DNA of 64,000 nt from positions 37,448,867 to 37,512,866 of the forward strand of contig CAIIXF020000008.1 in the NCBI GenBank assembly GCA_903813345.2. The letters are read 5' to 3'. Positions 15,536 to 49,799 of the stretch are shown here, piece by piece. The number at the start of each line of letters is the position of its first letter. The first letter of the stretch is position 1. A model generated the notes under the pieces. That model searched no databases and was not told where the DNA came from. It saw only the letters and a program-made list of their open reading frames with translations. This DNA is from Owenia fusiformis. Its lineage: Eukaryota; Annelida; Polychaeta; Sabellida; Oweniidae. Position numbers and translations under genes: made by a program.

Positions 15536-15573
15536 ACACTGATCAGTGTGATAGTATCATAGACACAGAATGT

Positions 15574-21845: not shown

Positions 21846-23103
21846 ATAAATATAAGGCAGTCTGGTCCCCGGGGAGGGTTGTTCTTGGTATTCTGACCTT
21901 CTGAAGACAAATCATCATTATTACTCATCAGTCAGGGGTTAGGGGTTGAAGGTGTTTCTTATATCAATACCAGACACTTTTGTTGATTCAACAAGTTGGT
22001 ATTATCTCATGCTGATGCCTTGTTATTCTATATAATCCAAAAACAAACTTAAAACACAGAGCTGATGGTGACATTTTCTCATGCTGATGCCTTGTTATCC
22101 AGTGGATTCTTCAAAAAAACTTTAAACCCAGAGCTTGACCTTATCCCAGTGTTTCCATTTTAATTGATCATGTGATATCTCATTTGATTAATGATGTAAG
22201 TTCCATTTTATTGAAATATGTAGAATCTTGGGTACAGTGCATTATTTTACTGAACTGATCTCAAAAAGTGAAGTTTTTCTGGCACTAAACCATTGGAGTT
22301 TGACAAGACTGCCACACTCCTTTCTCCCATTCTTTGCTTTCTGAAATTATAAGACAGTGATCTTTCCAGCATTGAATAACCTATGGCTGGATTCAGTTAA
22401 GAATTTTAAACTTTCCCCTGTCGCTGCTGAGAATTGAAAAGTTTCTTTTCAGAAAGGCATTGCTGTTGAACAAAGGTGAGATTTTGGACATCATGAAAAA
22501 TTAGGACATTCAGAGATTATTGAGAATTGAACTCAGTTCAGAAAATTTTGGTTCTCATCAGTTCCTTCTCCCTTCAAATAATTTAAATGTGGTCAATATT
22601 AGTAATATGCTGAATACTTCATGCATTCTAATTATTTCCCAACATTTATTTGATTGTAATTCAAAGCACCAATACATTTATTGAAGCTGTGAGTTTAAGC
22701 GGATTATGGAAATTTAGAAGCTGATTGAAAAGCCACACACTTTGGAATTGGAGAAACTGAATTGGAGAAATTATATTCAATTATGGAACAATTACTTAAT
22801 ACGTATTCTGAATAACACAAAAGCGGATTAACCCTCCAGAAGTTAACACATTCCAAATTATTTGAATTTTTCATTTCCTTGTAAACTATAGAAATTGATT
22901 GTTGGCTTGTAATCAGACATTAATGTGATTTTAATGACTCATCTGTTAAATAGCAAGAACACAATTACTATAGTGGCCAAAATCTAGAGTTGTGATTAAT
23001 CTGCATATTTAAGAGAGGAGAATTATCAGTCATTATTGTGTTAAATGTGGATTATCTGAAGGATAATCCAAAATTAAAACATGACCCATTACAAAAATGC
23101 CAT
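21846..23103. other. Non-coding
   Basis: A short direct repeat, 'tctcatgctgatgccttgtt', occurs near 22005 and 22076. Otherwise this is AT-rich sequence with no gene, RNA or array. Confidence 0.55.
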
Positions 23104-23250
23104 GAGGGTCATTTAAAATGCAGAATAGAAAGGAAAAGAGAGAAATCAGCAAGGAATAAACTCAATGGGCATGACGTAGGAGACATTCTAAATTGTATAG
23201 AAATGTAAGAAAATCAGTCACTTCATTTAACTTTTAGAGAGAAAAGACAT
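23104..23250 (+). repeat. Dispersed repeat family A, copy 5
   Basis: It contains 'agagaaatcagcaaggaata', 'gggcatgacgtaggagacat', 'attgtatagaaatgtaag' and 'agtcacttcatttaac' in the family order. It is the last copy seen in the window. Confidence 0.65.
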
Positions 23251-23464
23251 GACTTGTTATGATACATAGGAAATAAGGGTGTACAATGGGGGAGGGGTTG
23301 TTATGATATTGAACTCTGATCAATCCCTTTTGAACTGCATGGTTTTGAATAGTCTTTCCTACCATGAACTGTGGGAGAAGATGTGCAGCGTATGTTATAA
23401 AAAGGAGGGGGTGTTACATGACAAGATTAGAAGCAACCTAGCCAATCAAATGAACAGCACAAGC

Positions 23465-23632
23465 AAGCAAGGTCGCAGCCACATCAATCAAGGTAGCAAC
23501 CACACCAATCAAGGTAGCAACTAAACCAATCAAGGTAGCAACCACACCAATCAAGGTTGCAACCACACCAATCAAGGTTGCAACCACTCCAATCAAGGTA
23601 GCAACTACACCAAGATAGGTAACAAACTAACC
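23465..23632. repeat. 21-bp tandem repeat, about 7-8 copies
   Basis: The unit is 'aatcaaggtagcaaccacac' plus one C, with single-base variants (tagc/ttgc, ccacac/ctaaac). The period is seven codons, so frames stay open across part of it; no protein is implied. Confidence 0.9.
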
Positions 23633-25507
23633 AAGCAATGTATTCAGTGATCTCCTGAGCATGATAGCAACTGGGTGCTCTAAAGTAGTGAAATATTAAA
23701 AATTACAAGCCACCTTATTGAAAATCTGTTTGGTCTCTTTCAAAAAGAACCAAATATAGTACAACATGAAAATTAGGGCTCAAGTAACTCTCAGGAAAAA
23801 ATCTGAAAAGATCTATTTGGTATTTGATATTCTATTAACTTATGTGTATAAGCTCCTATTGATCACAACCATGTACCAATATTAATATAATGCCTATATT
23901 TCAACAATATTATATGATGTAATCTGATATACGAAATTGCAATCATCGTTATACTAATTAAATGGACATATTTGTAATAATTCTAATTAATCACCCGTAC
24001 AGGTTTGTGATTGTAGTTATTGTATTATTGTATTATGTAGTTTGATCTGGTTGATCTGTACACATGCGCAGGTGTTTCCTTTGATCTGTATACTATAGAG
24101 TTGATCATGAGGCTGGATCCTTTGATCTGGATTAGATCCTGATTATTTCTTTGATCAATGTAAATGTTTTAGCTCCTATTTTGATTTGTGTTTATGTAAC
24201 TTGAATTGTATGTAAATCTGTAAAATATTACCCTTCCCAAGAGAGCTCTCTTATGTTAACATTATTGCTAAAATGTCCCATTAATGGGCTTTTAAATCAA
24301 AGAGGTTTTACTGTATTTGCCAAGGGTTAAAATTCAGTAAATGCTATTTTGGTCATCTTGGCACGCTCGGTCTTCACTGCTGAACACTGATTGGGCGCAT
24401 TCTAGGATGCGCCATGGCACCCCCCATATACATTGTCAGGACTTTTACGCTAAATATACGAAGGCGACCGATGGGAGCCGAGTGAACGAAGATGTATTTT
24501 GGTTGTGTCTCTGGTTTTTGATTGTCTGTATAGTACTGATTGGTTAATGCTTGATCGAAGGATTATCTCTCTCAGAGTGTAGTTCTCTTTTAAAGGTGTA
24601 AAAATGGAAAGGGTAGAGGTTTGGTCCATCATCAATGATGCGTGTAATCCCTTGATTAACCTACTGGCAAAGTGATCTATTATTTACACCCCCATGGGGA
24701 TTCTACCAATTTCTTTTTGTGTTAAATCAATTTAGGCGTTCATCATAGTGGCCGTTTCGTCAAGGAAAACATAAATCTGTCCTCTATTGAACTTTGAATC
24801 AAATCTTCACTAAGATGGCTCTGGCATTTTTATAATTTATATCAGTCGAGTTGCTGGTCGCTACGGTCTATCATTATCTCATTGTAGTGATGATATTATT
24901 TGATTAAATATGTTCACTCACAAATTGTGCTCAACGATGACTTTTTGTTTTAAATCAATCTCAAATGAATACCTGATATTTCAACCGTTGACAATTCAAC
25001 AACATCTATAAGTGGTTGAGTAGAGTGTCTAGTGGGTATCTCAACTGACCATCTTCAACAGGTTGAAATTCAGTTTGCCACATGTCAAAATGATATAATG
25101 TCGAAATATTTTGACTAAAACAGGATAAGTGAGGCAAACACCCTTGAGGCCGATATTGATTAGATTTTGTAATGGATTCAGGCTATAGTTTACCCCAATC
25201 CTTAAACATCAAAGACATCTCTCCAAACTTAAAAAATGCAAGAAAGAAAAATTCACAGTCCTTCAATACGGCCCTCAAGAACTACACTACCACCTTCCAC
25301 AATCTATCTCTAAACCAGTGTAATGTTGGGAAAATGGAAGAATTATTGTTTAAAAAGTATTATCAGCCCCAGTAAAAGGCAAGAATATGAAATAGTGTAA
25401 AATTAGAGCAATCAATAAAACATTCAAGGACTCCCACTCCCATCATGTCAGTGATTTCCTCTAGTTAATTTCCCCAAATCACTTATACGTATGATTCTGT
25501 CCATTGT
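23633..25507. other. Non-coding
   Basis: Near 24230-24320 a MITE-like end appears ('gaggttttactgta'). At 24394-24415 there is a short palindrome, 'ggcgcattctaggatgcgcc'. A 67-codon ATG frame at 25172-25375 ('MDSGYSLPQSLNIKDISPNL') is Asn/Lys/Ser-rich with no recognised domain; it is left as unproven. Confidence 0.5.
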
Positions 25508-25589
25508 ATTCATGCATTTCACCTGTTATATTCATGCATTTCACCTGCTATATTCATGCATTTCACCTGTTATATTCATGCATTTTGCC
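25508..25589. repeat. 22-bp tandem repeat, about 4 copies
   Basis: The unit is 'attcatgcatttcacctgtt' followed by 'at', with starts at 25508, 25530, 25552 and 25574. Each unit contains 'atgcat'. Confidence 0.88.
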
Positions 25590-26594
25590 TCCAATCAAGA
25601 ACTCTAAAGACACCCATGTGTGTGGTTGTTTTCCTCTCCTGATCTCTATCTTGCTTTTATCTGCTTGTTTTCATTTTATAATTCAGTTGATCCCCTGTTG
25701 ACTGATGTTTGAAGTTATTCATGACAGACTGATTTTCTTTGCACATTTCTTCCATTTGATCTGAGTTCATGTTTCAGTACTGATCTCTCAGAGTCATGAA
25801 ATCAAGAAATCAGTTGTGATATAAGGATACTGATTTATGTACTGATTTTTCAATGCTTCTCTCTCTATTTAGACATCTCTGAGGCAAAGCCCTTCATTTA
25901 ATTCATAACACCAAAATGCCCCCACCCCAACTATTGTAATGTGCCTCTTTTTACACTAAAACATGAGAAAATCATAAATTGTTGTTGCAATTCTGATCAC
26001 TCAGGGTTAGAATCTTGGTATCCTGAAATCAGACGTGGTTTAAGGATATTCATTTACTTTTGCTGTTTATAACATGTTTGAAAGATGTTTGAAAGATTAG
26101 TTGATTCATATTCTCCCACGAAAGACCATTACTACTTTTTGGCTCATTATGGTTAGAATCAAAATTGTAAAATTGCCTATCATATTAAGAGGTAAATTAT
26201 TGTTACTAAATTCTGGGCTGTGAAATTGATATTTCTACACCAGTGTTCCTTTATCTCAAATCCTCAGGTTAAAATCTGGATGAACCTGTTCCTTTATATC
26301 AATAAGTCAAACTTACCATTGCGTTGCAAGTGGACCAAAACAGTTTTGAGGTAAAATGACCCAATTCTGTTGGTCTATACAAGCTGTTCCTGTTATATCA
26401 CTTACAATTAGTACATTAGCCTTTTTTCAAAATTAGTTGGCCCATATTTTCAAAAACTTTGCCCACATAATCAATAAAGTACACAACCCCAATCCTCACT
26501 ATGAAATCCCGGGATGGTAAACTCAAATAGTACAGTACCGTATGGTACCATATCATGCTCAGACTAAATAATAGTGTTGTCATGAACTATTCTG
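25590..26594. other. Non-coding
   Basis: No gene, RNA or clear repeat was seen in this AT-rich kilobase. Confidence 0.5.
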
Positions 26595-26900
26595 CAATTT
26601 CTTTTTTTCTTTTTTTTCTTTTTTTTGTAGTATTTATTTTATTTCAGTTTAAACTTCTTACATTTTAACATTTTAAAGCAACCTCCAAACGTTCTTCCTT
26701 TCACACCATACATTCCTACCCATCCATACCCTCTCATCTTTCATACATCCCAGTCAGACACATGCATACTGTAAATGTCACATAAATATAGAGGAAAACA
26801 TCATGCCATAAAATAAAGCATAGAACGCTATTTAAAGTTAGAAATCATAATTATCTAATTTGGAGCCCTCGGAAAGATACGCCCTAAACCCCAAGTATGA
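26595..26900 (-). mobile_element. Possible 3' end of a 5'-truncated LINE
   Basis: Read on the minus strand, an untranslated-looking segment ends in 'ctgaaataaaataaatacta' and an A-rich tail with interspersed G. That layout (AATAAA, then poly-A-like tail at one end and an abrupt start at the other) is what 5'-truncated retrotransposons leave. No coding segment and no target duplication was identified. Confidence 0.35.
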
Positions 26901-27205
26901 TATAGGTTCTCTTCTAAAAATCTTCGTATGCACATAGTACTACTTTTGATATGGTGCTTTCATCTATTATTAAATGAATGTTAGAATAATATATTTGACA
27001 TCTCATTGCAAACATTTATTGTATCACCAGTTCAAACAGAAAAAACAAACAAATAACAATATCTATAAAAAACACTTATTAAAATACACTTATTTTGAGT
27101 ATTGTATGGTGCTTCCATCTATAGAATCAGTTAAATGTTAGAATCATATTTCTGACATTAAATTAATTAATAAATTAACTCATATTCTGCCTTGTGTACT
27201 TACAG
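26901..27205. other. Intron-like sequence upstream of the terminal exon
   Basis: It contains a direct repeat of 'tatggtgctt(t/c)catctat' with its flank 'gttagaat' at about 26949 and 27103. It ends in 'tgtgtacttacag', the splice acceptor for the exon at 27206. Confidence 0.5.
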
Positions 27206-27386
27206 ATGGTGGGCCAGGGACCTGTGGAAAAAGTTCTTTGATACAATGCTTAACATCCCAAGCTGTAACGACCTTCCAGATGTAGGGGCCATTAGAAAGG
27301 AATTCCAAAATTATTTCAAGAACAAATACTCCGATGATATCCAGTCTATCCTACAAAGTGTTGACTTAATGTACATTGATGTATAG
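27206..27386 (+). CDS. Terminal coding exon of an unidentified gene
   Basis: The exon follows the acceptor 'tgtgtacttacag' and stays open for 59 codons to a TAG at 27384-27386. The first base completes a codon from the previous exon. The product 'WWARDLWKKFFDTMLNIPSC' continues to an end reading 'DDIQSILQSVDLMYIDV'. The mix of Trp, Asp and Phe residues looks like a folded C-terminus rather than chance, but I do not recognise the family. Upstream exons must lie further 5', probably beyond what can be recognised here. From 27334 the coding sequence is the first unit of the 77-bp satellite. A candidate poly(A) signal is at 31669-31674, which would place the whole satellite in the 3' UTR. Confidence 0.55.
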
Positions 27387-30300
27387 ATACACATGAGAGA
27401 AAGTTCTTTAATGATATCCAGTCTATACTACAAAGTGTTGACTTAATGTACATTGATGTATAGATACACATGAGAGAAAGTTCTTTAATGATATCCAGTC
27501 CATACTACAAAGTGTTGACTTAATGTACATTGATGTATAGATACACATGAGAGAAAGTTCTTTAATGATATCCAGTCCATACTACAAAGTGTTGACTTAA
27601 TGTACATTGATGTATAGATACACATGAGAGAAAGTTCTTTAATGATATCCAGTCTATACTACAAAGTGTTGACTTAATGTACATTGATGTATAGATACAC
27701 ATGAGAGAAAGTTCTTTAATGATATCCAGTATATACTACAAAGTGTTGACTTAATGTACATTGATGTATAGATACACATGAGAGGAAGTTCTTTAATGAT
27801 ATCCAGTCTATACTACAAAGTGTTGACTTAATGTACATTGATGTATAGATACACATGAGAGAAAGTTCTTTAATGATATCCAGTCTATACTACAAAGTGT
27901 TGACTTAATGTACATTGAAGTATAGATACACATGAGAGAAAGTTCTTTAATGATATCCAGTCCATACTACAAAGTGTTGACTTAATGTACATTGATGTAT
28001 AGATACACATGAGAGAAAGTTCTTTAATGATATCCAGTCTATCCTACAAAGTGTTGACTTAATGTACATTGATGTATAGATACACATGAGAGAAAGTTCT
28101 TTAATGATATCCAGTCTATACTACAAAGTGTTGACTTAATGTACATTGATGTATAGATACACATGAGAGAAAGTTCTTTAATGATATCCAGTCTATACTA
28201 CAAAGTGTTGACTTAATGTACATTGATGTATAGATACACATGAGAGAAAGTTCTTTAATGATATCCAGTCTATACTACAAAGTGTTGACTTAATGTACAT
28301 TGATGTATAGATACACATGAGAGAAAGTCCTTTAATGATATCCAGTCTATCCTACAAAGTGTTGACTTAATGTACATTGATGTATAGATACACATGAGAG
28401 AAAGTTCTTTAATGATATCCAGTCTATACTACAAAGTGTTGACTTAATGTACATTGATGTATAGATACACATGAGAGAAAGTTCTTTAATGATATCCAGT
28501 CTATACTACAATGTGTTGACTTAATGTACATTGATGTATAGATACACATGAGAGAAAGTTCTTTAATGATATCCAGTCTATACTACAAAGTGTTGACTTA
28601 ATGTGCATTGATGTATAGATACACATGAGAGAAAGTTCTTTAATGATATCCAGTCTATACTACAAAGTGTTGACTTAATGTACATTGATGTATACAGGGT
28701 GTCCCGAAAGTATGGGGCCCCCCCTAGGCAGACATATACCAATGTCTCCATAGTATGCGTCATATATCATTTTAAAGCTTATCCAAAGTTACATTGATTC
28801 ACCAAGTATCATGGTTCAACTCTCAAATGTGAAAAAATTACAAGCATTTCAAAATTTAGTGTTTGGTCAAAATTAAGTTCAATTTTACACCAAATCACTA
28901 GTCAATGTGTCCTCCCGGGCCATCTTAAAAGCAGCAATTCTTTACGGGTCGGATGAATATTGAGTTGGAAAAAGAGAACGGTGACTCTAAGGAAACTCTT
29001 CTAAAGTCCCTTAACAGGTTTTAAGAGGGTTATACAATTCCACACCCCTATTTGAAGGGCTTTTAAGGTCATATCTGAAAATAATTGCTGCTGTTAACAT
29101 GGCCAAGGGGGGCACATTGACTAGTAATGTGGTGTAAAATTGAACTTTATTTTGACAAAACACTAACTATTAAAACGACTGTAACTTTTTCCCATTTGGG
29201 AGTTAAACCATGATACTTGGCAAATCAATGTAACTTTGGATAAGCTTTAAAATGATATATGACACATACTATGAAGACACTGGAATATGTCTGCCTAGGG
29301 GGGGGGCCCCATACTTTCGGGACACCCTGTAGATACACATGAGAGAAAGTTCTTTAATGATATCCAGTCCATACTACAAAGTGTTGACTTAATGTACATT
29401 GATGTATAGATACACATGAGAGAAAGTTCTTTAATGATATCCAGTCTATACTACAAAGTGTTGACTTAATGTACATTGATGTATAGATACACATGAGAGA
29501 AAGTTCTTTAATGATATCCAGTCTATACTACAAAGTGTTGACTTAATGTACATTGATGTATAGATACACATGAGAGAAAGTTCTTTAATGATATCCAGTC
29601 TATACTACAATGTGTTGACTTAATGTACATTGATGTATAGATACACATGAGAGAAAGTTCTTTAATGATATCCAGTCTATACTACAAAGTGTTGACTTAA
29701 TGTACATTGATGTATAGATACACATGAGAGAAAGTTCTTTAATGATATCCAGTCTATACTACAAAGTGTTGACTTAATGTGCATTGATGTATAGATACAC
29801 ATGAGAGAAAGTTCTTTAATGATATCTAGTCTATACTACAAAGTGTTGACTTAATGTACATTGATGTATAGATACACATGAGAGAAAGTTCTTTAATGAT
29901 ATCCAGTCCATACTACAAAGTGTTGACTTAATGTACATTGATGTATAGATACACATGAGAGAAAGTTCTTTAATGATATCCAGTCTATACTACAAAGTGT
30001 TGACTTAATGTACATTGATGTATAGATACACATGAGAGAAAGTTCTTTAATGATATCCAGTCTATACTACAAAGTGTTGACTTAATGTACATTGATGTAT
30101 AGATACACATGAGAGAAAGTTCTTTAATGATATCCAGTCTTTACTACAAAGTGTTGACTTAATGTACATTGATGTATAGATACACATGAGAGAAAGTTCT
30201 TTAATGATATCCAGTCCATACTACAAAGTGTTGACTTAATGTACATTGATGTATAGATACACATGAGAGAAAGTTCTTTAATGATATCCAGTCCATACTA

Positions 30301-30518
30301 CAAAGTGTTGACTTAATGTACATTGATGTATAGATACACATGAGAGAAATTTCTTTAATGATATCCAGTCTATACTACAAAGTGTTGACTTAATGTACAT
30401 TGATGTATAGATACACATGAGAGAAAGTTCTTTAATGATATCCAGTCCATACTACAAAGTGTTGACTTAATGTACATTGATGTATAGATACACATGAGAG
30501 AAAGTTCTTTATGATATC
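27334..30518. repeat. 77-bp satellite, about 33 copies
   Basis: The unit begins 'atgatatccagtctatacta' and ends 'gagagaaagttcttta'; starts at 27334, 27411, 27488 and 27565 give the period. Copies differ by one or two substitutions (cca/cta, tac/tcc, aaag/aatg). The first unit is coding at its 5' end and contains the stop codon of the preceding exon, so the array arose from the gene's own 3' end. It is interrupted once by the MITE at 28695-29329, and the last unit is broken by a second MITE. Confidence 0.97.
28695..29329. mobile_element. Mariner-type foldback MITE in the satellite
   Basis: The 635-bp element has ends 'cagggtgtcccgaaagtatg' and its reverse complement, flanked by TA on both sides. 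The satellite sequence resumes exactly where it broke ('gatgta|ta|gatacac'), which fixes the limits. The arms extend over 200 bp with small differences. There is no open frame. A fragment of the same family ends the repeat near 63663. Confidence 0.92.
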
Positions 30519-30759
30519 CAGGGTTCTCACCAGGAAATTTTGGACTCCGGATTTTTTTTGCGGTATCGCGACTACTTCTCCCCCAGTTTTATGTATTTTT
30601 TCAAGAGTTTTACCGCAAATAATGTGACAAAAATATAAAATTAGACTCTGGAAAAAACACTTTACGGTCCGGAAAGGCTATTAGACTCTGGAGCGAGAGG
30701 GTTTTAAGACATTAGACTACGGAGAATCTCCAGAGTCTAAAAGCCTAGTGAGAACCCTG
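30519..30759. mobile_element. MITE, TIR CAGGGTTCTCACC
   Basis: The 241-bp element starts 'cagggttctcaccagg' and ends 'cctagtgagaaccctg'. The satellite bases atatc are repeated on both sides (30514-30518 and 30760-30764). It interrupts the last satellite unit; beyond it, degenerate unit-like sequence continues to about 30860. No coding capacity. Confidence 0.85.
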
Positions 30760-30764
30760 ATATC

Positions 30765-32250
30765 CAACATATACATGTTCTCCATGTACATGAGAAAAAG
30801 TGCTTCTCTGATAATATCCAATCATGAACATTAATGTGTAGATGTTCAAAAGTAAAGAAACTACTCTAATGTTTTCTGATATACGGATGTACTTCAATCA
30901 GGTGATTAAATGGCAAAATTGGAGCACATTTTTCTAGAAATGGGGTCATTTTCCACATAGGATAGGGCCTTTTGAAAACAAGGTCTAAATATATTTTATT
31001 CTTGGAGTGATATGACTATGTAAGATGCCTCATGCAACTGGCATATATCTTATTTTATGTAATCAACATCATTTTTTTTGTAGTAATTTGCTAAAAATAC
31101 TTTTTGTAGATTTATTAAGTATTTGTTATATTATCTTATAGCCGTTGGCTGTATATATAAGTTTTATAGATATTTCTTGGTAGGAGTTCAGAGAACGGAA
31201 ACCACAGTGTTGAGTTATACATCTACTTAAATATATGAGTATACTCCCCTTCAAAAGTTTGGCATCCAAGACTCTTGATTAGATAGCTGAAAAAGGCTAT
31301 TTATGCATTATAAATCCCTTCTTCCTGAATAACGTTAGGTGAGGAATTCATGGCTTTGAAGATCTGTCTGAATTGGAGTTAATGTTTCCAAACTTTTTGA
31401 GTTGAGTATAATTCATGACTTGATCTAAAATGCTTTGATTTATGTAATTATGCCATCTATATATAAGAAAGTGAAACAATCACAGGTTACCAGTGGTTAT
31501 GTTGAATGAATGGGAAGTTTTACATGTTCATTGTTCAATATTGGTAAAATAAGTTTGTATGAATGTGATTTAATGTGCTGAGACTCGTATAGATGGCAGT
31601 TCACTTATTTCCTCAAGAGAGTTATTCTTGACACCAGCCCCATTGGTTTTTGTATAAAATATTGCTGTAATAAAACTTCAAATACACTACATGATCAAAC
31701 TAATGATATACTTTCTTTTCATAATTATTTTATTACATTTTTATGGCAGCAATGCTTGTTTTCATTTAAATATACAGATTGATTGCACATCATGTCATCT
31801 TTAGGGCTTTGTGTTTTGTACGACTGACAAAATCTGTAGCAATGCTCGTCGAATGATTCACCAAATGAGAAACCTTGCACTTCTTGACTAAAAAATGAAA
31901 GTAATCATAAATGGGATTTAAAAAGTAAATGACCATGATCATCTAAGACTATTTGGTATGTTCTCTATGTGATCTTCCTTAAGTTCTTATAGTCTAGAAT
32001 TGGTATGTTGAAAATAAAATGACATCTTACATTTTGACGAGCACCTTAACCATGGTTATTAAATGAAAGGTAAAGGGTTCCTTTATTGATACTGAGATTT
32101 GCCAAGATGAAATAGGTGTTGAAGTGAGTTTTTTGGTAAAAAGATGTGTTTTTTTGCAAAAAAAATTTTGAATTGATAAAAAATATTTTTGAAAATTGAT
32201 TACCCTCAGTAAAGAAAAAAAGGTGCATTGTCCTTTACCAATCATAACTT
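30765..32250. other. Intergenic region between convergent genes
   Basis: Degenerate satellite-like sequence fades out by about 30860. AATAAA at 31669-31674 is the best plus-strand poly(A) candidate. Another AT-rich 1.4 kb holds no gene. Confidence 0.5.
31669..31674 (+). terminator. Candidate poly(A) signal, plus strand
   Basis: AATAAA in 'ttgctgtaataaaacttc' is the first good signal downstream of the satellite on the plus strand. If used, the unidentified gene has a 3' UTR of about 4.3 kb containing the satellite. Confidence 0.3.
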
Positions 32251-32251
32251 T

Positions 32252-32257
32252 TTTATT
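32252..32257 (-). terminator. Poly(A) signal of the dioxygenase gene
   Basis: On the minus strand 'gaaaaataaaaaag' gives AATAAA about 72 bp after the stop codon. It is the first such signal downstream of the gene. Confidence 0.6.
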
Positions 32258-32328
32258 TTTCGTTATTATTATAAAAAACGTTCAGAGGCGAAATCTCTCC
32301 ATTATAGAGACTGCAACGTTATATTGTG

Positions 32329-33507
32329 TTAGCTGTCGAGAACAATATCGAAAAAACCCTCAGATTGTCTGGTAGACCCGACTGTCTCCAAACTAATTGT
32401 TCTATGAGGATCATTAGAGTGACAGTATGGAGGTGGACATGCGTCGCTAACTCCCAAATACGGATCATTTTCAAAGTAGATCTGAGTTACTAGGCTATGA
32501 TATCCAGGCTTTGTGGTGAAAATGTGGATGTGGGCTGGCCTAAACTGCCCATTAACTACATAACGTCCAGGATGAATTGTTTCAAAATTATAGAAGCCAT
32601 TCTCATCTGAGAGGATGTATCCCCTGCATGTATTATCATTGTGGTATCCCCCTTCCTCATCTGCCTGCCAAATCTCAATTTTCGCTCCACTCAGTGCATC
32701 ACAGTCCACATTCTTCACGTATCCTTTTATACTGATCTTCGGTAGAATGGTATAATTTTTATATCGCATACAAATGTGATTATTTTCCGCTGTATCTGGT
32801 TTAAAAAATGGGCCCAAGAGGTCTTCTTGAGTTGGTTCGCAATGCTCCGATACAGCGTCAGTGAGATCTTTGTGATTTTTGATCACTTTGAAGTCATCAT
32901 TCTGAAACATACATAGTAATGACTAGGAAAGTTTCACATATTTATATCAAATCCATGGTCATTTTGACCATTTTAAGATAGGGAAAACCAGGCAGTAATA
33001 TTGTCTCATTTTGGCAAACTTTACACCAATGACATGTAGCCATATTCCTTCTCGATTAATAACATAACCTTCATGAACACCAAAATCGTTTTTAATTTTT
33101 TGAAGAGTAAGTACTAGGTTTGCAGGTGTATGTAACTCATTTACACATAAAATGACCAATAGAAGTTGAACGCAATGAACCTCATGCACAAATAGGATGA
33201 CCTGGACGACCCAACGAACTTCATGAACAAAGAGTGATCAATATGAGCTTAATACAATGCACCGCATAGAGTGACCGTTATGAGTTGAACACAGTGAACC
33301 TCGTGCACACATAGGATGACCTGGACGACCCAACGAACTTCATTTTAATTGGAGTTCGAGGTAAATGCAAAGATCGATCAATTTATATTTTCATGGATTC
33401 ATAGTTCTGTATTTTGTAAGACCTACCTCTTTTGAGGAAATCGTTATTGATGCACAATGCACATTCAAAACTCCCACAACAAATAGCAGCACAACTAATA
33501 TCTTCAT
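32329..33507 (-). CDS. Secreted intradiol ring-cleavage dioxygenase, two exons
   Basis: Intradiol dioxygenases use non-haem Fe(III) to open catechol-type rings between the two hydroxyls. The model joins exon 1 (33507-33427, 27 codons) and exon 2 (32901-32329) through a phase-0 GT-AG intron, giving 217 residues. Exon 1 encodes a signal peptide ('MKILVVLLFVVGVLNVHCAS'), so the product should be secreted. Exon 2 has 'CEPTQEDLLGPFF', then 'IEIWQADEEGGY', 'GFYNFETIHPGRY' and 'GQFRPAHIHI'. The family's four iron ligands are all present: Y113, Y141, H151 and H153. The length suits the short secreted class seen in fungi and spider mites rather than bacterial catechol dioxygenases with a helical N-terminal domain. 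A TATA box lies 41-50 bp upstream of the ATG. The substrate cannot be told from the sequence. The family is rare in animals, so horizontal acquisition is likely. Confidence 0.9.
32902..33426 (-). other. Intron of the dioxygenase gene
   Basis: The donor is GAG|GTAGGT and the acceptor 'tatgtatgtttcag', both phase 0. Inside, 'gatgacctggacgacccaac' and its flanks occur twice (near 33196 and 33316), giving an imperfect 120-bp duplication. A 76-codon frame in the intron is not supported as an exon. Confidence 0.8.
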
Positions 33508-33547
33508 TCTTGAATGATCCCCTTGTCGTCGGTTTATTGTACAGGTT

Positions 33548-33557
33548 CTATATATGC
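33548..33557 (-). promoter_or_regulatory. TATA box of the dioxygenase gene
   Basis: The minus strand reads 'gcatatatagaacc' about 41-50 bp upstream of the start codon, a spacing that allows a short 5' UTR. Confidence 0.6.
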
Positions 33558-33559
33558 AG

Positions 33560-34135
33560 CTTGAAGAACATGAAATTTGAGGGTATTTATATACAAAAAA
33601 TAACGTACTGGATGTTTACAACAATATTACCTTCACAGGGATGTTATGACAGTTATGACGTCTGATGTTTGACCGACAAAGACATATTGCATTGGCCAAC
33701 CAATCGTTGTACTTATTGTTTTCTGGTTTCTAGAGTAAACATCCTGTTTCAATGCTAGCTCAAAGATCATCCTGAAAATTTACTTAGAACATTAAAACAT
33801 AAACTAAACTCTTATGATGAACAAGCTAATTGTACTTCCTTATTCACCAAGTACAATTTGGTGTACAATGATGTTCGTGCTAGTTGAACGTTATGGAGAA
33901 GAAGGGGAGTTGTTTGTAAAATGAATTGAGGGAGTTTTGTCAAGCAGTTCTCTTATGCTTTTCATCATAAAAACATCAATACACTTTAGAACATTTTATT
34001 GATTATAAGATTGCACCATATATCCCCAAAAATATTTCTCATTTTCAAGGATTATCTATGGATTAACACCCAGGTATTGTTATTTTTCAAACTTCAGAGG
34101 GCTGGGAATCATTATTACGATCCCTTTTGAATAAT
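33560..34135. other. Upstream region of the dioxygenase gene, no other gene
   Basis: The sequence is AT-rich without recognised coding sequence. It ends at the left end of the nested DNA element at 34136. Confidence 0.5.
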
Positions 34136-34487
34136 AGAGAGGTTTCGCAAAACGTTTTTTAGCTCCACGGATCCGTATCCGTAACGTATTTATCAGATTT
34201 ATGCGTAGTCAGTTCAATATATACGTGAAATGATACGGAAAACACAAAAATGAGGCTTTTGTACGTTGGTCATTTACGTATCCGATTTGACCCTTCGATT
34301 ATATGGTTTTTAGTTCTAAAAATAGCACTATATGAACAAGCACAGTGTGCTGTGTATAATTTGACTAACATTTGGTGAATGAATTTGTTTATTGTTTGAA
34401 ATAAATCGAGTTTTTCAAATGGTATGTTCAATTTATTTTACACTGTATGGAATCGTATTGCAATAATTACAGTGTACATGTTTCGCA

Positions 34488-34560
34488 CAACGTTTTAGCT
34501 ACCCGTATCAAAATCCGTAACGCATCGATGGAGTAAAAGTGTACTCAATACGTTTGTGAT
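34488..34560. repeat. Second copy of the 'tttcgca...acgttttagct' end
   Basis: The sequence 'tttcgcacaacgttttagct' followed by 'ccgtaacgcatcg' repeats the terminal sequence found at 34140, about 350 bp inside. This may be a subterminal repeat or a remnant of a second copy. Confidence 0.5.
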
Positions 34561-34673
34561 ACCAACAGCAATACAGAAAGTACGTAAACGAACACTTTCT
34601 GTGTAGTCCATTTGTCACCCCTATACATCCAATAGTGAACCTAGAAATTGTTAAAAGTACGATTTATGATAAT

Positions 34674-34910
34674 AAGGGTTTTCTGAAGTGATTTAACTGG
34701 GTTGCCCAAAAAGTTTGTTTGGGGAAAAAATGATATAGGCTGATTAGGGAGGGGTGCAATCGCTTAACATGGCGTTGACTATTGACTTAGCGTTTGGATA
34801 CCACCATATACCTGGTATGTTACCATGGTAATAGATACAAAAATTTTCCCCAAAGTTATTTTTTGGGCAACCCAGCTAAATCACTCCAATAATCCCTAAT
34901 GATAGTATTT
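34674..34910. mobile_element. Foldback MITE, 'ctgggttgcccaaaaagt' arms
   Basis: The left arm 'gtgatttaactgggttgccc' with 'aaaaagtttgtttgggg' is mirrored by 'ttttttgggcaacccagcta' and 'aatcac' at 34865-34895. Weaker inverted similarity extends outward to 'tccatttgtcac' and 'gacaaatgga' (34607 and 34956). No coding. Confidence 0.65.
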
Positions 34911-35879
34911 ACACAGAAAAACATCATACTTTTAAATATTTATACATTCAAAAAATGACAAATGGACTAGTGCGTAGTTGTCTCCGTATCTATTTTGTCC
35001 TTCAAATCTTGATAATTTTTTCCCTAAATGTATAATTTTAGTAACACACATATGTTATCATGTGTGTCGTGCTAATTTTGATAAGTAATTGCCTTATCTG
35101 CCGATAAATTTGATTATAAGCGATGGGCCTGCAATTTTTACAAATAAAGCTTTAGTCACATTTGCTAATAGGCAGATGTAAGGTCTATCGTTTCTGGGGT
35201 CAATAGTAATACCGTAGTCAATTTCTTAGGGACATCAAACCAATGGTTATCAGCTAGGCCACCTGAATATATATTTTATGCCTTAAGTCACGCTCCGAAT
35301 TCATATAGAGCAGGGTCTTGGGCTTAGTTTGAGTATAGTAGCTTTTTCCTGACCTCGACAATGAATGTTACATTGGGTCTAAAGATGGCGCCCCGCATCA
35401 CTCTTGCCCGTATCCAGCTTGTGACAAGGGGGGGGGGCTTTTTTGGCTTAAAACTCCCGAGAAGTGCTCAGTATGATGAAAAACTGAATGATTTTGAATT
35501 TTTTTTAGCCAGGTAGCTTCTTCCCGTGGTATGACTTGAACACGCATCGAGTCGTGCGATCTATGTCAAATAGTAAGCGGCCTCGTTTGGGGGTCCAGGG
35601 AGACTAGTGCCCTAAAGTTTAGTGCCCAAGCTTCCCCGAACCACCGTCAGTGATTATGTAACAGGTAGAGTATATTTCTTTGATCCTAGGATGATGATAT
35701 TGGCGTATCATTTCCTATTTTCATTTTTGTAAAGACAGGCCTGACATCCAGATCCTGTAACGGATCTTCTCTCTTACATGTGAGTCACGGTAGGGGCCCC
35801 AGATGTTCCTAACTCTTGGGTAGTGGTCCATGATGTGTTCTTCATTAGCAGCCTTGGGATGATAGGGAAGGGGGGGTTG

Positions 35880-36860
35880 TAATTCAAGTACATATTCAGT
35901 AGATACCGGGTTGTCCCCAATTGTTTTGTGCGATTGTCTCCAGTTGGAATAACTTAGTTGAGTAAATCGGTATCAACGTTTCGTTGTGGTTTATTGGTTT
36001 TGCCTGATTGTGTTTTGATGGGTTGAGTGAATCGATTGAGTATTTGACTAAGCCTGGTTGTGTAATGGTGGGTTAGTGTCAAGTAGGTATAGGTATTGCC
36101 GAAATGTGTTGTGTACGTTTGAGACTAGGTTCTCTTTTGATGGTTGTTAGTCTGGTGATTTAGTATCGGGTTGTGTCCCATTGTGTTATGTTAATCTTAT
36201 AATGGGTTGTTTTCTCTTGTGAATATGATCTGTAGGTTGGCTAGCTGGTTGTGGCTAGTAGGGTGAGGTATCTTGTTTTGTCTGATTGTGTTGTGTGATT
36301 GGCGTTGTCTCCAATTGGGTTAAGTTAGTTGTGTATCTCGGTATTACAATTTTAATGTGTTTTTTGCCTGTGCCTGATTTTGTTTTGATTTTTTGGTTTT
36401 TGCTTTTGAAAAATTGTGTTGTGTTACTTGAACAATGGGCTGTGTTTGCTTTTGTTGGTTTAACATTGGGTTGTGCCAAATTGTGTGGTGATAATTTCAC
36501 AGTTCGATGTGTTTTCATGGTTGTTAGTTTAGCTGTGTTTTATTGGTTGTGCCTGGTTGTGTTTTTATTGTTTAGTGTTGGATTGTGCACAATTGTGTTG
36601 AATTAATTCAAAAATTGGTTGTGTTTGTCTTTGTTGTCTTATTATTGGGTTGTGACATATTGTGTTAATCTGACAGTTGGTTGTGTTTTGGTGGTTGTAA
36701 GTCAGGTTGCGCCATGCTGGCTTTGGTGCTGGGTTATGCTATATTGCGTTCTGAGTATTTTGACCCTGGGTTATGTTCTATTGAACTGTTGCATGACTGG
36801 TGATCTAGGTTGTGTTTGGTTGTAATAGGTTATATATTTCGAGTTGTGGGCTGTGTCCGA
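35880..36860. repeat. G+T-rich degenerate repeat tract
   Basis: For nearly 1 kb the plus strand is strongly enriched in G and T, with recurring 'gggttgtg', 'ggttgtgttttg' and 'attgtgtt' motifs at irregular spacing. It looks like an old, decayed tandem array. Open frames on either strand here (for example 36286-36606) encode low-complexity Val/Leu/Cys or Thr/Asn/Gln peptides and are not accepted as genes. Confidence 0.65.
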
Positions 36861-37367
36861 TCAGGCTGTGGTGTTTATTGGGATAAGAAACAAATGGCCG
36901 GTTTAGGGTATTATGTTGTTGGTTTATCAGTTGATTCTATGTAGACCCCAAAGGGGATATAGGGTATCATGATGGTGAGATATTCAACTGGCATGGTAGG
37001 CATTAGCTTCGCGTCGTTCTCTGATGAGCTTGTCCCCTGTTGTTCAATGAATTCAAGAAAAACAATGCTAATTTATCTTTTTACATAATTTATTTTTTGT
37101 TCATTTCTCATACAAAACATACTTTTATTGCATAACTGATATATTTGTGTCGCATTCTATGATCAAATATGTTATTTTGCTCCCCTTCTTAGTTTATATG
37201 AGGCATGGGTTTTCAACTAAAGCCCATGTATGAGGAAAGGGGGTGGCTTATGTGAAAACGTATGGTTTCCGAATGCCTTGGCCTTGCCCAAGTCGCTATT
37301 TCTTTATTTATTTGATCTTGAATTATTACCAAAATATACAGCTGCAAAAACATGAAATTAAAGGTCA
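36861..37367. other. Non-coding up to the Gypsy insertion
   Basis: No gene is seen. The last bases, 'aaggtcaatgtg', include the left target duplication of the Gypsy element. Confidence 0.5.
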
Positions 37368-37372
37368 ATGTG

Positions 37373-39102
37373 TGTCACATATCAATGCAGTATGGGAGTA
37401 TACCTCCTTTTTGAAACACTACCTTGTTTACCTCCTTTGTACAATTTCTTTGGCAATGCATTCACACTTTCTAATTATACCATAAACAATGAATAGGATT
37501 AAAACTGTACAAGGTTACTTTGCAATGTAGAGCAAGATTTGTGTGTAGAAGGCAAGTAAGGCAGGCACAGATGGGTGTAAAAATATGAGAAATTTATCTA
37601 AGGTATTTATGTTCAATCTATTTTGTTAATTTTATGTAGATGTTATGTTAATATACTATTTTATTCAATTACTACAAATGTTAGATTTTATGGAGTGAGT
37701 TAGACAAGTTACTTAGCAAATAATTATTTTATATTTTAAGCGTTCAGTGTTGTATGAGAAAGATGATATTGTTGCGTAAAAGACTAGACAGTTTGTAGCA
37801 GAATGTGATGTCTATAGCGTGACGTAATTGATGAAGTAATTACCATTCATATGTGATATGTGCTTAAGAGACTAGGCAGTTCGTAGCAGAATGTGATGTC
37901 CATAGCGTGACGTAATTGAAGTAATGACTATTCATATGTGATAATTGTGATGCGAAATATTACCTGATATGAGGTGAGACAAAATATTTATTAATTATTC
38001 CCAGAGTGACCTGACCTTGCTGAACTTTATGTATATTGCTACAATTCTACGATAAACTATATTGTGAAATATCATCATTCCTGTGATTGACTGTGGCGTT
38101 ATAGTTATAATGATGCTGATGCTGCGTAAATGAACATGAACCTATGTTGCTGATATCGCATATTCCATATGGTATCTTATGCTGCAATCGTGAACAATAA
38201 CCCTTACAGGATTTTCTCGCATATACGCCCCCCTAAATTTAGGCCCATGGGCCAAAAATCGAATGTAGTACGCTTATACGCCCATGGGCTTATTAAAAAT
38301 GACTATTTATTGTTTTTTTCAATAAATTCAAGAGTATTTTGTCACTGGCAGATCGTTCTGTCGTTACTTTGTTTCAACATTAAGTTCAACGCTGTGCCGT
38401 AAGTGGCAGTGATGGATCGTTCTGTTGTTACTTTGTTTCAACATTAAGTCCAAGGTTGTAGGTGACATTTCCCTTGTAATTCTTACAAAACATGCGGTAG
38501 GACTACAACAGTAGGTACGGTAGTCTTTGAGGAAGATGGCTGATGCCCACCCCGCGGTGGCTCTTCTCACCCTTACGCCCACTGGGCCAAAAATCGAAAG
38601 TAGTACACTTATACGCCCATGGGCGAAAAATAAGAGGTAAAATAACAGACGAAATTACCCCTTCTTTCAGTTGTACGCCCAGGGCTTATATGCGAGAAAG
38701 TCCGGTACTACATAAAGATACAATCATCTATCGAGGAATCCTAATATACAAGCATCTCCCCAGTGATTGTCATATACACCCAGTGATTGTTATATACAGG
38801 GTGATCTTAAAACTATAGATCTAAAATTCTCGTGATGAACATTTGAGTTCTACCAAATGTGAACAATATATAATTTGTGCATTATCACGCTTAGGAGTGT
38901 TTAGAGTATTTAATTTGAACGCAGATAGATATGTTAAGTAAGATAGGCGTTAGGTGTTAGTTAGTGTACATACTTTCGTATTATTCATTTTCTTATTTTA
39001 TATTTATACGAACACAAGTTATTCTTTTAATAAACTTTAATATGTTATTTTAATTACATGTTTTGTTAGGGGTCATAAAATTATACCCGGGAACTCTTGA
39101 CA
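37373..39102 (+). repeat. Gypsy 5' LTR, interrupted by a MITE
   Basis: Without the 498-bp MITE and its 3-bp duplication the length is 1229 bp, identical to the 3' LTR. I could spot about seven substitutions between the two by eye. A poly(A) signal AATAAA lies at 39029-39034. Near 38797, a 'cagggtgatcttaaaac' mariner-like end is part of both LTRs and hence older than the insertion. Confidence 0.93.
38208..38705. mobile_element. MITE in the 5' LTR, TAC duplication
   Basis: The ends are 'aggattttctcgcatatacg' and 'cttatatgcgagaaagtccg' plus G, imperfect inverted repeats. TAC is duplicated (38205-38207 and 38706-38708), and the 3' LTR at 49394-49405 shows the empty site. Internally it has a direct repeat of 'gttactttgtttcaacatta' and several 'acgcccatgggc' motifs. 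Three-base duplications fit CACTA/EnSpm or Harbinger; I cannot choose. Confidence 0.88.
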
Positions 39103-39103
39103 A

Positions 39104-39116
39104 TGGGGGCTCGTCC
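39104..39116 (+). other. Primer binding site, tRNA-Pro type
   Basis: The 13 bases 'tgggggctcgtcc' start two bases after the 5' LTR and equal the core of the well-known tRNA-Pro primer site of many retroelements. Complementarity ends after 13 bases. Confidence 0.75.
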
Positions 39117-39853
39117 ACACTTTTGACCTTGAACGCTTAGATAACATAAAAAATCCTTTAAGGTAGTGTCACATCATATACAGGGTGATCCAGAAGTAAC
39201 GTCAAAGACATTGTAATTTCAAAAGTATTCATCAGATCTTCATGAAATTTGGTATACATGTACCCACAACATTTCTGAGTTACCATCTCAAAGATTGGAA
39301 TTCAATCATTTCATTGGTTGAAATTATGGTTGCTATAGGAACCCGATATCGCGTAACCCGGGGCAAATTACTTAACGTGTAATGCGTAATCTCAAAATAT
39401 CAACAAGATCTGAAATTGTTATATCCTCAACATTTTATTTCACAACAATATAAATCATACTATTGCACAGTTACTAATAATAGTTCATTCTACATAATTG
39501 CCACCATTTGCAACACATTTCTCATGTCTGGATACCCATTCCTTGAACAAAGAATTAAATCCATTAGAACTCATTCCTTGTAGGGCTAGTACTACGGCAT
39601 TTTTCAATTCCTCACAGGATTGAAAATTATTTCCACTAAGGTTTCTTTTTAGTTCCCCATACAAATAAAAGTCACTGGGGGCAAGATCAGGTGAATAAGG
39701 GGCATGTTCAAGTTGTTGAAATCCAAGTGTTTGGACTGTGTTGCTGGTCAGGATTGCAGTGTGCGTAGGGGCATTGTCCCAATGCAAGATAAACTGCTGC
39801 AGATGTCCGGGACGCTTTTTCCTCAGGGAACGTTGAAGATCACGCTTCAGAAC

Positions 39854-40024
39854 CTGAAAAACAAATGTTTAATGGTTGTTAAACCAGTTGTTTCATTGAT
39901 TGGATTTGGATTTGAATCATGGCCATGGAGTTATAATTATATTGACAGTGAACAACATTTAAATACTTTAATTTAAAAATAAAATTCACAGTATGATGTA
40001 TTATTAGAACAAATGATATCTTAC
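39854..40024 (-). other. 171-bp intron in the mariner transposase
   Basis: On the minus strand the donor is AAG|GTAAGA and the acceptor 'atttgtttttcag'. Removing it joins 'NAVYIAK' to 'VLKRDLQRSL', a continuous mariner motif in phase 0. Read through, the sequence meets a stop within nine codons. No TIRs or target duplication mark it as a transposon. Confidence 0.8.
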
Positions 40025-40224
40025 CTTTGCAATGTAAACGGCATTAATTCTCTGGCCAATGGGAACAAAATGGGTTAACACCATTCCTCTAATGTCAAAG
40101 AATGTCACAACCATTTGTTTCTTTTGTGGAATTCCTGGTACTATTTTAGGCTTGGTTGGTGTTGGGGAGTTGTCATGTTTCCACGATGAACTTTGTTGCT
40201 TGGTCTCTGGGATGTAGAATGATT

Positions 40225-40788
40225 AGAATACTTAGAATACTCTTCTTCAGTTTGGGACCCTTACCAGAAGAAGGACAAAGCAAGGGTAGAGATGGTTCAG
40301 CGTCAGGCAGCAAGGTTTGTAACCAAACAGTACTCTAGGGAGCCAGGAACCATCACCAAGATTTACAAAGATCTGGAATGGAAACCACTTGAAAACCGAA
40401 GACAAACCAAGAGACTCACCCTATTCCATAAAGCCCTTCATAATGAAATAGCAATACCCATTCCCCCCTACATCGAGAAATCCAACAGAACTGGCAGAAG
40501 AGCCCAACAATTCATTCCTCCCTTTGCCAGAACTGATACCTACAAGAATAGCTTCTTTCCCAGAACAATAACAGATTGGAACAACTTCCCTTCCACAACC
40601 AGGATGATAGAAGACAGTACTGCCTTCCGTGATGCCCTGGTATCTAGTATGCAGGGTTAGCTCATGACACGAGACCTGTTTTTAGACAGTATTTTAATTG
40701 TACATACTGCCATTTTAGACTTTTAGCTTGGATGACTTCCAAAACTAATTGTGTTGCTCTTTAAAGAGCTTTAATTAGTATAATGATA
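40225..40788 (+). mobile_element. 5'-truncated LINE 3' fragment in mariner
   Basis: The fragment is flanked by 'gatgtagaatgatt' (40211-40224) and 'gatgtagatagcaatgatt' (40789-40807), a target duplication differing by a 5-bp insert. It encodes the last part of ORF2, then a 3' region ending 'ttagtataatgata'. It is a different family from the LINE at 13680. Confidence 0.88.
40226..40660 (+). pseudogene. C-terminal end of a LINE reverse transcriptase
   Basis: About 144 codons are open to a stop at 40658-40660. 'EYSSSVWDPYQKKD', 'VEMVQRQAARFV' and 'RTDTYKNSFFPRTITDWNNF' are the conserved C-terminal motifs that follow the RT domain in many CR1/Jockey-type ORF2 proteins. Catalytic RT motifs and endonuclease are absent because of 5' truncation, so there is no function. 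The reading frame is undamaged, which suggests recent insertion. Confidence 0.85.
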
Positions 40789-41653
40789 GATGTAGATAGC
40801 AATGATTCGTCACTCGTAATGATCTTGTTAAGAAAGTCATCTCCATCTCTCCGATATTTTGCAAGAAAGTCCCTTGAAGCCTTAACACGCCGGTCTTTCT
40901 GCTCCTGTGTCAAGTCATGCGGCACCCATTTAGCAGACACCTTCTTTAACAGACAGTTCTTTGTCAGTATCCGTTGCACAGTCCCATAGCTCAGATCGTG
41001 TTTTTCAGCCAATTCTCTGATAGAAATTTGCCTATTGTCCATAACATCAGCTTCAATTGCTTTGATGGTTTGATCATCGAATGACGACACTGGCCTGCCT
41101 CCTCGCTGCTTGTCTACCACTTCATCATATCCACTGGAATACTTGTTAAACCACCTGTAAATGTTTCTCTCAGCAATGGCAGCTTTACCATATGCCTTCT
41201 TTATCTGTCTTATAGTCTCTTTTACACCTTTCCCCAACTTTACACAGAACTTAATGTTTGTTCTTTGCTCTATTTTACTCTGACTTGGCGCCATCTTGAA
41301 TTGGGTGGGTTAGTGTCCTTGGTCATGTTAGTATTTGTCATGGATGATGGAAGCAATTCAAAGAAATTGAAAGCTTTTTATGAATGCCTATTGTGACATC
41401 ACAACTATTACATATTTGTTACCATGGCAACAAATATAAAAATCATAGAAAACAAACAATGAACATTTTCAAATGTTACTGACTTTTTAAATTAGAGAAA
41501 TTCACAAAAACGTTATGGTTTCTCTTCAATTTGCCCCGGGTTACGCGATATCGGGTTACTATAGCAACCATAATTTCAACCAATGAAATGATTGAATTCC
41601 AATCTTTGAGATGGTAACTCAGAAATGTTGTGGGTACATGTATACGTACCAAA

Positions 41654-42598
41654 GGATGAGTCTGGGAATGAGTCAGGGTATCGACTTAGAAAATATTGAA
41701 AATTCGAATGTCTGAAAAACCAACTCAATCACACATATTATTAGACTTCAATATCTTATCCTTCTTCTGAGATTACAAAAATATCAATTTGTATCACAAT
41801 TGATGAAGAATATTGGCATCAAAGACAGTGCATATCACTTTGTCAGAATTGAAAAAATTCAATGGCAAAAATATTATTATTGAATTATTTATACAAAAAG
41901 TTTTAAACATATCCTCCAAAACATTGCTTACTTTCTTTGTATAGACATTGAATGGTATTTCAGGATAAGTGAATTGGTGTTTATCTGGGTAATAAAGGGA
42001 TTATAGTCACTCAAAGTTACTGAGCATCCAATTTAGAGACTTCAATTGTGTTGGTGAAGTTACACATATTTTAGTCAAATTCATGCTGAGCACAACATTT
42101 TGGTTTCAATTTTATATTCTCTATACATGACCCTGGTGATAAAGAGTCAGAATCAGTCAAAAAACCTAAACCGGAAAACTGTGCTCATTGTGAAAACTAA
42201 AAGTGAAGCAACTTTTTTTACAGATATTTCTTCCATCAAATGGCAGCCATCTTGTTTTTCCACCTTCAAATTAAACTGGCGGGAAATTCAAAAAATTGAA
42301 AAAACTTTAATCCTTAGATATATTTCAAAAATATGATTTTCTTTTATAATTCTTCATGGGTCTTAAGTTATTTCTTCTTAGTATGTCATATATGTTGCCA
42401 TTGGTGTTTTTTTCTATGATAATGACTATTGTTTTGTTTTTTAAGATACTTATTCTGACTTTCAGCAGGGGGTTAATTATGCATCAAAACTCGTGAAAAA
42501 GTAAATATACTTATCAAATATAACTAGGACAGTAATAAAAACCATATTTCACATACATTTGACTGAGGGACCAAAAGGGTATATATCCGGACACATCC
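41654..42598. mobile_element. 945-bp insertion in the mariner right TIR
   Basis: The left TIR predicts the join 'accaaa|tttcatgaag'. Here 945 bp starting 'ggatgagtctggg' and ending 'ccggacacatcc' stand between them. The two ends are short imperfect inverted repeats. I see no target duplication, which fits Helitron-like insertion between A and T, but the canonical TC start and CTRR end are absent. No gene inside; a 78-codon frame at 42100 is not protein-like. Confidence 0.7.
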
Positions 42599-42942
42599 TT
42601 TCATGAAGATCTGATGAATACTTTTGAAATTACAATGTCTTTGACGTTACTTCTGGATCACCCTGTATATGTTATAGTTAAGGTAGTTAGTCACGAATAG
42701 GCTAGTATACATTTATCAAAATTAAGGTAACATAACACAAATCCTTAAGGAGGTGTTACATGTAAAGTGTATATACGTTTGTTTTACAGTTTTTATTTCA
42801 AGTTTACAATTTTAAAACGCATTAAAATGCTTATAACGCGTCTCGCGCATATCAAATTCACATAATTTTGAAAAAAGAAAATCATAAAAACTTGACATTT
42901 TCAACATATTCGCGTTTTTATCCCAGAAAAATCGTTTTCAAA

Positions 42943-49794: not shown

Positions 49795-49799
49795 ATGTG

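What the first reader, a model, noticed from the sequence alone, without database searches (positions are those of the whole stretch)
32329..33507. Secreted intradiol dioxygenase gene in an animal genome
Seen: a signal-peptide exon, a phase-0 GT-AG intron, a TATA box, and all four iron-ligand positions (Y113, Y141, H151, H153). Known: intradiol dioxygenases are mainly bacterial and fungal; animal cases are few, the spider-mite secreted enzymes of likely fungal origin being the best known. Inference: a functional, domesticated transfer used to break down catechols outside the cell. The intron and the animal-type flanks argue against contamination.
Basis: partly seen in the sequence, partly recalled or inferred. 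Interest (0 to 1): 0.8.

Follow-up and report, generated by a model that had tools for sequence, protein, structure and literature searches.

The report
Secreted catechol-cleaving enzyme in an animal
An animal genome, possibly that of a segmented worm, carries a small family of genes for a secreted iron enzyme that probably breaks catechol rings, a type of enzyme usual in bacteria and fungi but reported in few animals.

Summary
On the minus strand, 33507-32329 encodes 217 residues: a signal-peptide exon, a 525-bp phase-0 GT-AG intron, and an exon with an intradiol dioxygenase domain (PF00775, E 7.9e-23). The four iron ligands are where stated and invariant in 16 of 16 aligned rows. Contamination is very unlikely: the gene lies in a 39-Mb contig, its intron carries repeats found on other contigs, and the genome holds three more open copies and two fragments. 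One copy lies in a block about 99% identical, roughly 99 kb away: a tandem duplication or an assembly duplicate. Two single-exon copies on another contig begin with signal peptides by eye and are 60-63% identical; dN/dS among the three paralogues is 0.085-0.255. The nearest sequences sampled are small, apparently secreted bacterial proteins at 31-38%. Mite enzymes match more weakly. Fungi and other animals could not be searched, so donor and date stay open. The host is perhaps an annelid (tentative). Activity, splicing and secretion are inferred. A new member of a known enzyme family in an apparently unreported animal lineage.

The parts
33427..33507 (-). Exon 1: start codon and signal peptide (27 codons)
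   Evidence: Translation. Copy 2 on the same contig differs by one base here, V6L. Two paralogues on C4 also begin with signal peptides by eye. No homology to another gene was found for this exon.
32902..33426 (-). Phase-0 GT-AG intron, 525 bp, carrying repeats found elsewhere in the genome
   Evidence: Splice sites. Of 29 matches to 32902-33760, 2 are this locus and its near copy; the other 27 are partial and fall in the intron part of the query.
32329..32901 (-). Exon 2: intradiol dioxygenase domain (PF00775) with Fe ligands Y113, Y141, H151, H153, and stop codon
33587..33593 (-). TATA-like element 80 bp upstream of the ATG
   Evidence: short motif, weak by itself.
32252..32257 (-). AATAAA polyadenylation-like signal 72 bp after the stop
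   Evidence: short motif, weak by itself.
22064..64000 (.). Part of a block that recurs about 95-101 kb downstream on the same contig, in pieces mostly about 99% identical from 34 kb on, with stretches missing or inserted between
   Evidence: Megablast of the window against six 10-kb stretches around the second copy, matches of 400 bp or more shown; 99.2% identity over 3,571 bp around the gene.

Best explanation
This is a functional animal gene for a small secreted non-haem Fe(III) intradiol ring-cleavage dioxygenase, one of a small family in this genome. The signal peptide sends the protein into the secretory pathway, where conserved cysteines probably form disulfides. Two tyrosines and two histidines hold Fe(III), and catechol-type substrates are cleaved by O2 between the two hydroxyls to muconate-type products outside the cell. 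The most likely role is removal of dietary or environmental phenolics in the gut or at the body surface. Shown here: gene structure in the DNA, active-site residues, a predicted fold, genomic integration, paralogues and low dN/dS. Inferred: splicing, secretion, iron, activity, substrate, role, and an old gain from a microbe (nearest among the groups sampled: bacteria).
For: PF00775 E 7.9e-23. Fe ligands, and R148 and Q167 (their role in catechol 1,2-dioxygenase is recalled), invariant in 16 of 16 rows. 50 of 50 listed Foldseek matches, of 68 at E <= 0.001, are intradiol dioxygenases, best SACTE_2871 (best model pLDDT 80.0, the five models 65.8-80.0). The six cysteines of the mature protein are all conserved in the three paralogues, two of them in 16 of 16 rows. 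Six places in the genome, four open across the domain, on two large contigs. dN/dS 0.085-0.255, five of six estimates. Genome repeats in the intron. No match to muconolactone isomerase or the Lactonase family in the genome, which fits detoxification better than full catabolism.
Against: No RNA or activity data. The C8 gene has an intron and a separate signal exon where the C4 genes have neither, so exon 1 is not confirmed by homology. The C4 copies lack the TATA pattern. dS is above 1, so dN/dS values are rough. Without eukaryotic sequences an old, wide presence in animals cannot be excluded. The family searches for downstream enzymes see genes exon by exon and can miss them.
Confidence: 0.78

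Rival explanations
1. The gene is contamination or an assembly error, not part of the animal genome.
For: The family is typical of microbes (general knowledge; it rings in 4 of 14 control genomes, the 4 named ones prokaryotes, and no eukaryote control was shown). The near-identical second block could be one locus assembled from both haplotypes, though that would concern copy number, not origin.
Against: 39-Mb and 32-Mb contigs; an intron with repeats found on other contigs; paralogues on two contigs at about 60% identity; no listed prokaryote match above 38%; G+C of the gene 38%, window 34%.
Confidence: 0.03
2. The enzyme works on the animal's own catechols (DOPA, dopamine, tanning or tube-cement catechols) rather than on food or environmental phenolics.
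For: A secreted location fits both. Animals have such catechols (general knowledge).
Against: Nothing here separates the two; the characterised animal cases, the mite enzymes, are reported to act on plant phenolics (PMC9167512, passages).
Confidence: 0.25
3. The gene is an old eukaryotic or animal gene kept by descent and lost in most lineages, not a transfer into this lineage.
For: The animal proteins form a group on a long branch with no near donor among the rows sampled. The paralogues are deeply diverged.
Against: Papers seen describe animal intradiol genes in mites and tardigrades as transfers. The reported distribution is patchy.
Confidence: 0.3
4. Exon 1 is not used: the protein starts at the ATG at 32910 and stays inside the cell.
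For: An open frame of 193 codons starts there. The intact C4 copies have no intron between signal peptide and domain.
Against: That ATG lies directly at the acceptor site. Both intact C4 copies carry signal peptides joined to the same core, and the mature chain has six conserved cysteines, as secreted proteins often do.
Confidence: 0.06

Closest known systems
Streptomyces SACTE_2871 secreted intradiol dioxygenase (PDB 4ilt, 4ilv)
   Same: Best match in the PDB by sequence (E 2.3e-16) and by fold (E 4.0e-15, 30% identity); small catalytic domain.
   Different: SACTE_2871 is a fusion with a carbohydrate-binding protein (PDB title); the animal proteins match PF00775 alone, apart from a SpaA match below its cut-off.
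Small PF00775 proteins of Nitrospirota, Rokubacteria and one Pelobacter genome bin
   Same: Same C-x-P-[TS]-x-x-D-x-LGPFYKPD start, two shared cysteines, all ligands; nearest sampled group in the tree (92/92). Signal-like N-termini by eye.
   Different: 31-36% identity in the alignment; about 150-160 residues, without the animal C-terminal part that holds CPPxxC. Function untested.
Spider-mite DOG enzymes (Tetranychus urticae, PDB 5vg2, 6bdj)
   Same: Animal, secreted, multigene family of intradiol type (PMC9167512, abstract and passages).
   Different: Weak match to the proteins here (E 1e-4 and 1.2e-4, 2.6e-5 and 2.7e-5; 33rd-34th and 32nd-33rd of 34) and not among the 50 listed fold matches (18 of the 68 were not listed). 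Mite genes are reported to come from fungi.
Tardigrade intradiol dioxygenase clusters
   Same: Named among tandem clusters of transferred genes (PMC5531438, one passage).
Phage catechol 1,2-dioxygenase (PDB 9yh9)
   Same: Small single-domain enzyme, 28% identity in the fold match, E 4.6e-13 by sequence.
   Different: From a soil metagenome phage by its PDB title; a scan of viral contigs with the window protein found no relative.

Membership tests
Intradiol ring-cleavage dioxygenases (PF00775) | Match over the curated cut-off | tested here: met
   81.3 bits against 27.3; C4 paralogues 71.7 and 80.4 bits.
Intradiol ring-cleavage dioxygenases (PF00775) | Two Tyr and two His iron ligands, plus active-site Arg and Gln (roles recalled) | tested here: met
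   Invariant in 16 of 16 rows: 3 proteins of this genome and 13 of the 15 bacterial loci.
Intradiol ring-cleavage dioxygenases (PF00775) | Fold of known intradiol enzymes | tested here: met
   AlphaFold2 best model pLDDT 80.0, pTM 0.77; 50 of 50 listed PDB matches are intradiol enzymes. Ligand geometry was not measured.
Intradiol ring-cleavage dioxygenases (PF00775) | Fe(III)-dependent cleavage of catechols between the hydroxyls | not testable with these tools
   Needs purified protein.
Spider-mite DOG family | Animal PF00775 protein with a signal peptide | tested here: met
   Exon 1 and two C4 paralogues, signal peptides judged by eye.
Spider-mite DOG family | Common descent with the mite genes, fungal origin | tested here: inconclusive
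   Mite proteins rank 33rd-34th and 32nd-33rd of 34 PDB hits; no tree, because mite and fungal sequences were not held.
SACTE_2871-type fusion | Carbohydrate-binding module on the same chain | tested here: not met
   Pfam finds none in the 217-residue protein or in the two C4 paralogues.

The most novel reading that the evidence does not exclude
A lophotrochozoan (perhaps annelid) lineage gained a bacterial-type secreted intradiol dioxygenase independently of mites and tardigrades, expanded it on two chromosomes, and in one branch of the family added an intron and a separate signal-peptide exon, giving a further animal route to extracellular aromatic-ring cleavage.
Probability: 0.45. Interest if true: 0.6.

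Novelty: new member of a known kind. Interest (0 to 1): 0.45.

Why it matters
[quoted passage not shown] spider mites are reported to have gained it from fungi and to use it against plant phenolics (PMC9167512, passages). A maintained family in another animal phylum would suggest that such gains happened more than once, also outside plant feeders. Single-exon and spliced paralogues in one genome would let the gain of an intron and signal exon in a foreign gene be studied directly.

Tried and rejected
Host identity: COX1 gave no match. The 18S model search failed on the machine, so I located 5.8S and read the adjoining 18S; that it looks lophotrochozoan is my reading from recall. Mollusc haemocyanin gave nothing, but no control rang either. 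Annelid erythrocruorin linker PF16915 gave three matches within 15 kb on C6, 28.4-38.1 bits against a cut-off of 27, one with a stop inside; 0 of 14 controls rang; that the family is confined to annelids is recalled. The Owenia fusiformis paper gives 505.8 Mb and 12 chromosome-scale scaffolds (PMC9977687, passages); 498 Mb in 525 contigs here is near that, but identity is not established.

Relatives: a scan of viral contigs gave two pattern matches and no relative; PHROGs none. NCBIfam matches were far below their cut-offs. Alignment A2 used 13 of the 15 loci; L013 and L020 were left out as near copies, and the first codons were picked by hand, so that the rows of L012, L014, L017, L019 and L025 do not begin at a Met. 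The tree used 12 of those 15 loci (L023 also left out) and 7 of the 793 plasmid records, with 3 proteins of this genome; it is rooted at the midpoint, one row is a long branch, and it holds no other eukaryote. The scan sees only relatives that carry one of two peptide patterns. The list shows only matches of 400 bp or more.

Literature: 8 searches. 'intradiol' with 'annelid' gave 2 papers and with 'mollus' 8; judged by titles and abstract starts none is about such a gene in an annelid or mollusc genome (one is on shipworm gill symbionts). Term searches in two annelid genome papers found no 'dioxygenase' (PMC9977687, PMC12403961). The library holds only open-licence papers, so this does not show absence from print. 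One search was too broad to be useful. PMC12105342 (dust mite) holds 'intradiol' only in its reference list.

Full report
What is there. The gene runs on the minus strand from 33507 to 32329. Exon 1 (33507-33427) encodes a typical signal peptide by eye. A 525-bp intron with GTAGGT and TTTCAG ends follows in phase 0. Exon 2 (32901-32329) holds the rest of a 217-residue protein. Pfam gives PF00775 at E 7.9e-23; a SpaA match is below its cut-off. TATATAA at 33587-33593 and AATAAA at 32252-32257 flank it; the TATA pattern was not found before either intact C4 paralogue.

Active site and fold. In an alignment of the window protein, two paralogues and 13 of the 15 bacterial loci, the columns of Y113, Y141, H151 and H153 are invariant, as are R148 and Q167 (numbering there is 26 lower). 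That the last two serve catalysis is recalled. The best AlphaFold2 model has mean pLDDT 80.0 and pTM 0.77; the five models range from 65.8 to 80.0. Foldseek finds 68 PDB chains at E <= 0.001; the 50 listed are all intradiol dioxygenases, led by Streptomyces SACTE_2871 (30% identity). Ligand geometry could not be measured. A stretch of low confidence (model residues 152-160) overlaps the CPPxxC part that the three proteins of this genome have and the 13 bacterial rows lack.

Integration. The window is C8:37448867-37512866 of a 498-Mb assembly in 525 contigs. A DNA search with intron, exon 1 and upstream region gives 29 places, a lower bound by the tool's own note: this locus, its near-identical copy, and 27 partial matches at 68-91% identity on eight contigs. 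All 27 lie within the intron part of the query, none in exon 1 or upstream. The intron thus carries this genome's own repeats.

Family in the genome. A protein search gives six places: this gene; a copy at C8:37579903-37580475 with identical exon 2; two at C4:2272012 and C4:2268572 (63% and 60% identity; 59% and 56% over the whole alignment); and two partial ones, at C4:2254689 (55 residues) and C8:37676281 (33 residues). PF00775 finds the four full ones. The two full C4 genes are single open frames that begin with signal peptides of their own. NG86 and YN00 estimates among the three paralogues give dN 0.23-0.26, dS 1.0-2.7 and dN/dS 0.085-0.255 over 168-170 codons; one of six estimates failed. 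dS is high, so only the direction, purifying selection, should be trusted. The six cysteines of the mature protein are shared by the three.

The near copy. Around the gene the two C8 copies are 99.2% identical over 3,571 bp. The alignment has 32 differing columns: none in exon 2, one in exon 1 (V6L), one in the intron, four upstream and 26 downstream. Matching pieces run in the same order from about 22 kb to the window's end, 95-101 kb away, mostly about 99% identical from 34 kb on, 90-97% between 22 and 27 kb, with a 77-bp satellite between. The two 10-kb stretches farther upstream that I fetched gave no match of 400 bp or more. This may be a recent tandem duplication or one locus assembled from both haplotypes. 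A third, truncated copy farther on (DNA pieces 88-95% identical) suggests an older duplication as well.

Relatives elsewhere. Among 793 plasmid records with a match none reaches 60% identity, and the 25 listed lie at 27-37%. A pattern scan of genomes of 84,980 prokaryote species gave 15 loci at 33-38%: 11 Nitrospirota, 3 Rokubacteria and 1 Pelobacter by title, small proteins with signal-like N-termini by eye in the 13 that I translated. A tree of 22 rows groups the three proteins of this genome (99/98) and puts them next to the small bacterial ones (92/92, below the tool's star level), apart from five actinobacterial and rhizobial proteins, PcaH and a hydroxyquinol-type row. It is rooted at the midpoint and has no fungal, mite or other animal row. 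In PDB searches the mite enzymes come near the bottom of 34 hits. So the nearest relatives sampled are bacterial, far off, and do not point to the mite genes. An independent old gain is likely but not proven; long descent with losses is not excluded.

Host. I read the 18S beside the 5.8S on C501 as lophotrochozoan, from recall. The annelid linker family PF16915 matches three times within 15 kb on C6, over its cut-off, one match with a stop inside. I take an annelid as the best guess, no more.

How it likely works. The signal peptide and cysteines point to the secretory route; Fe(III) held by two Tyr and two His, O2 and a catechol would give a muconate-type acid. Neither muconolactone isomerase nor the Lactonase family (which holds a fungal carboxymuconate cyclase, recalled) was found in the genome (they rang in 2 and 5 of 14 control genomes). 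This leans to detoxification rather than use as food, though a missing match is not proof of absence. Which catechols, and in which tissue, is open.

Against known systems. It meets the tests of an intradiol dioxygenase that could be run. It would work like the mite DOGs as described in PMC9167512 (abstract and passages), but membership in that clade is untested by tree. Tardigrade clusters are named in one passage of PMC5531438. By listing, no paper found describes such a gene in an annelid or mollusc.

Noticed in passing
window 27334-30521: A 77-bp satellite, 41 copies, ends 1.8 kb from the gene's 3' end; it recurs in the second C8 block.
   Followed up: partly
window 53146-55152 and 55508-56758: Two arrays of a 183-184-bp unit whose consensus units read, by eye, as reverse complements: a large near-palindrome.
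   Followed up: no
window 13580-19581: A LINE-type stretch with two long open frames, the second with endonuclease and reverse transcriptase domains; the first has only sub-threshold Pfam matches.
   Followed up: partly
window 10799-11580: C-rich minisatellite with a unit of about 49 bp, about 15 copies, and strong strand asymmetry.
   Followed up: no
L008 (C501:27500-30800): This 18S gene copy seems to lack an inner stretch compared with what I recall of animal 18S; possibly a broken rDNA unit.
   Followed up: no
window 22064-64000 and C8:37570000-37608000: Two blocks 95-101 kb apart, about 99% identical in most matching pieces, differing by inserted or missing stretches; tandem duplication or both haplotypes assembled.
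   Followed up: partly
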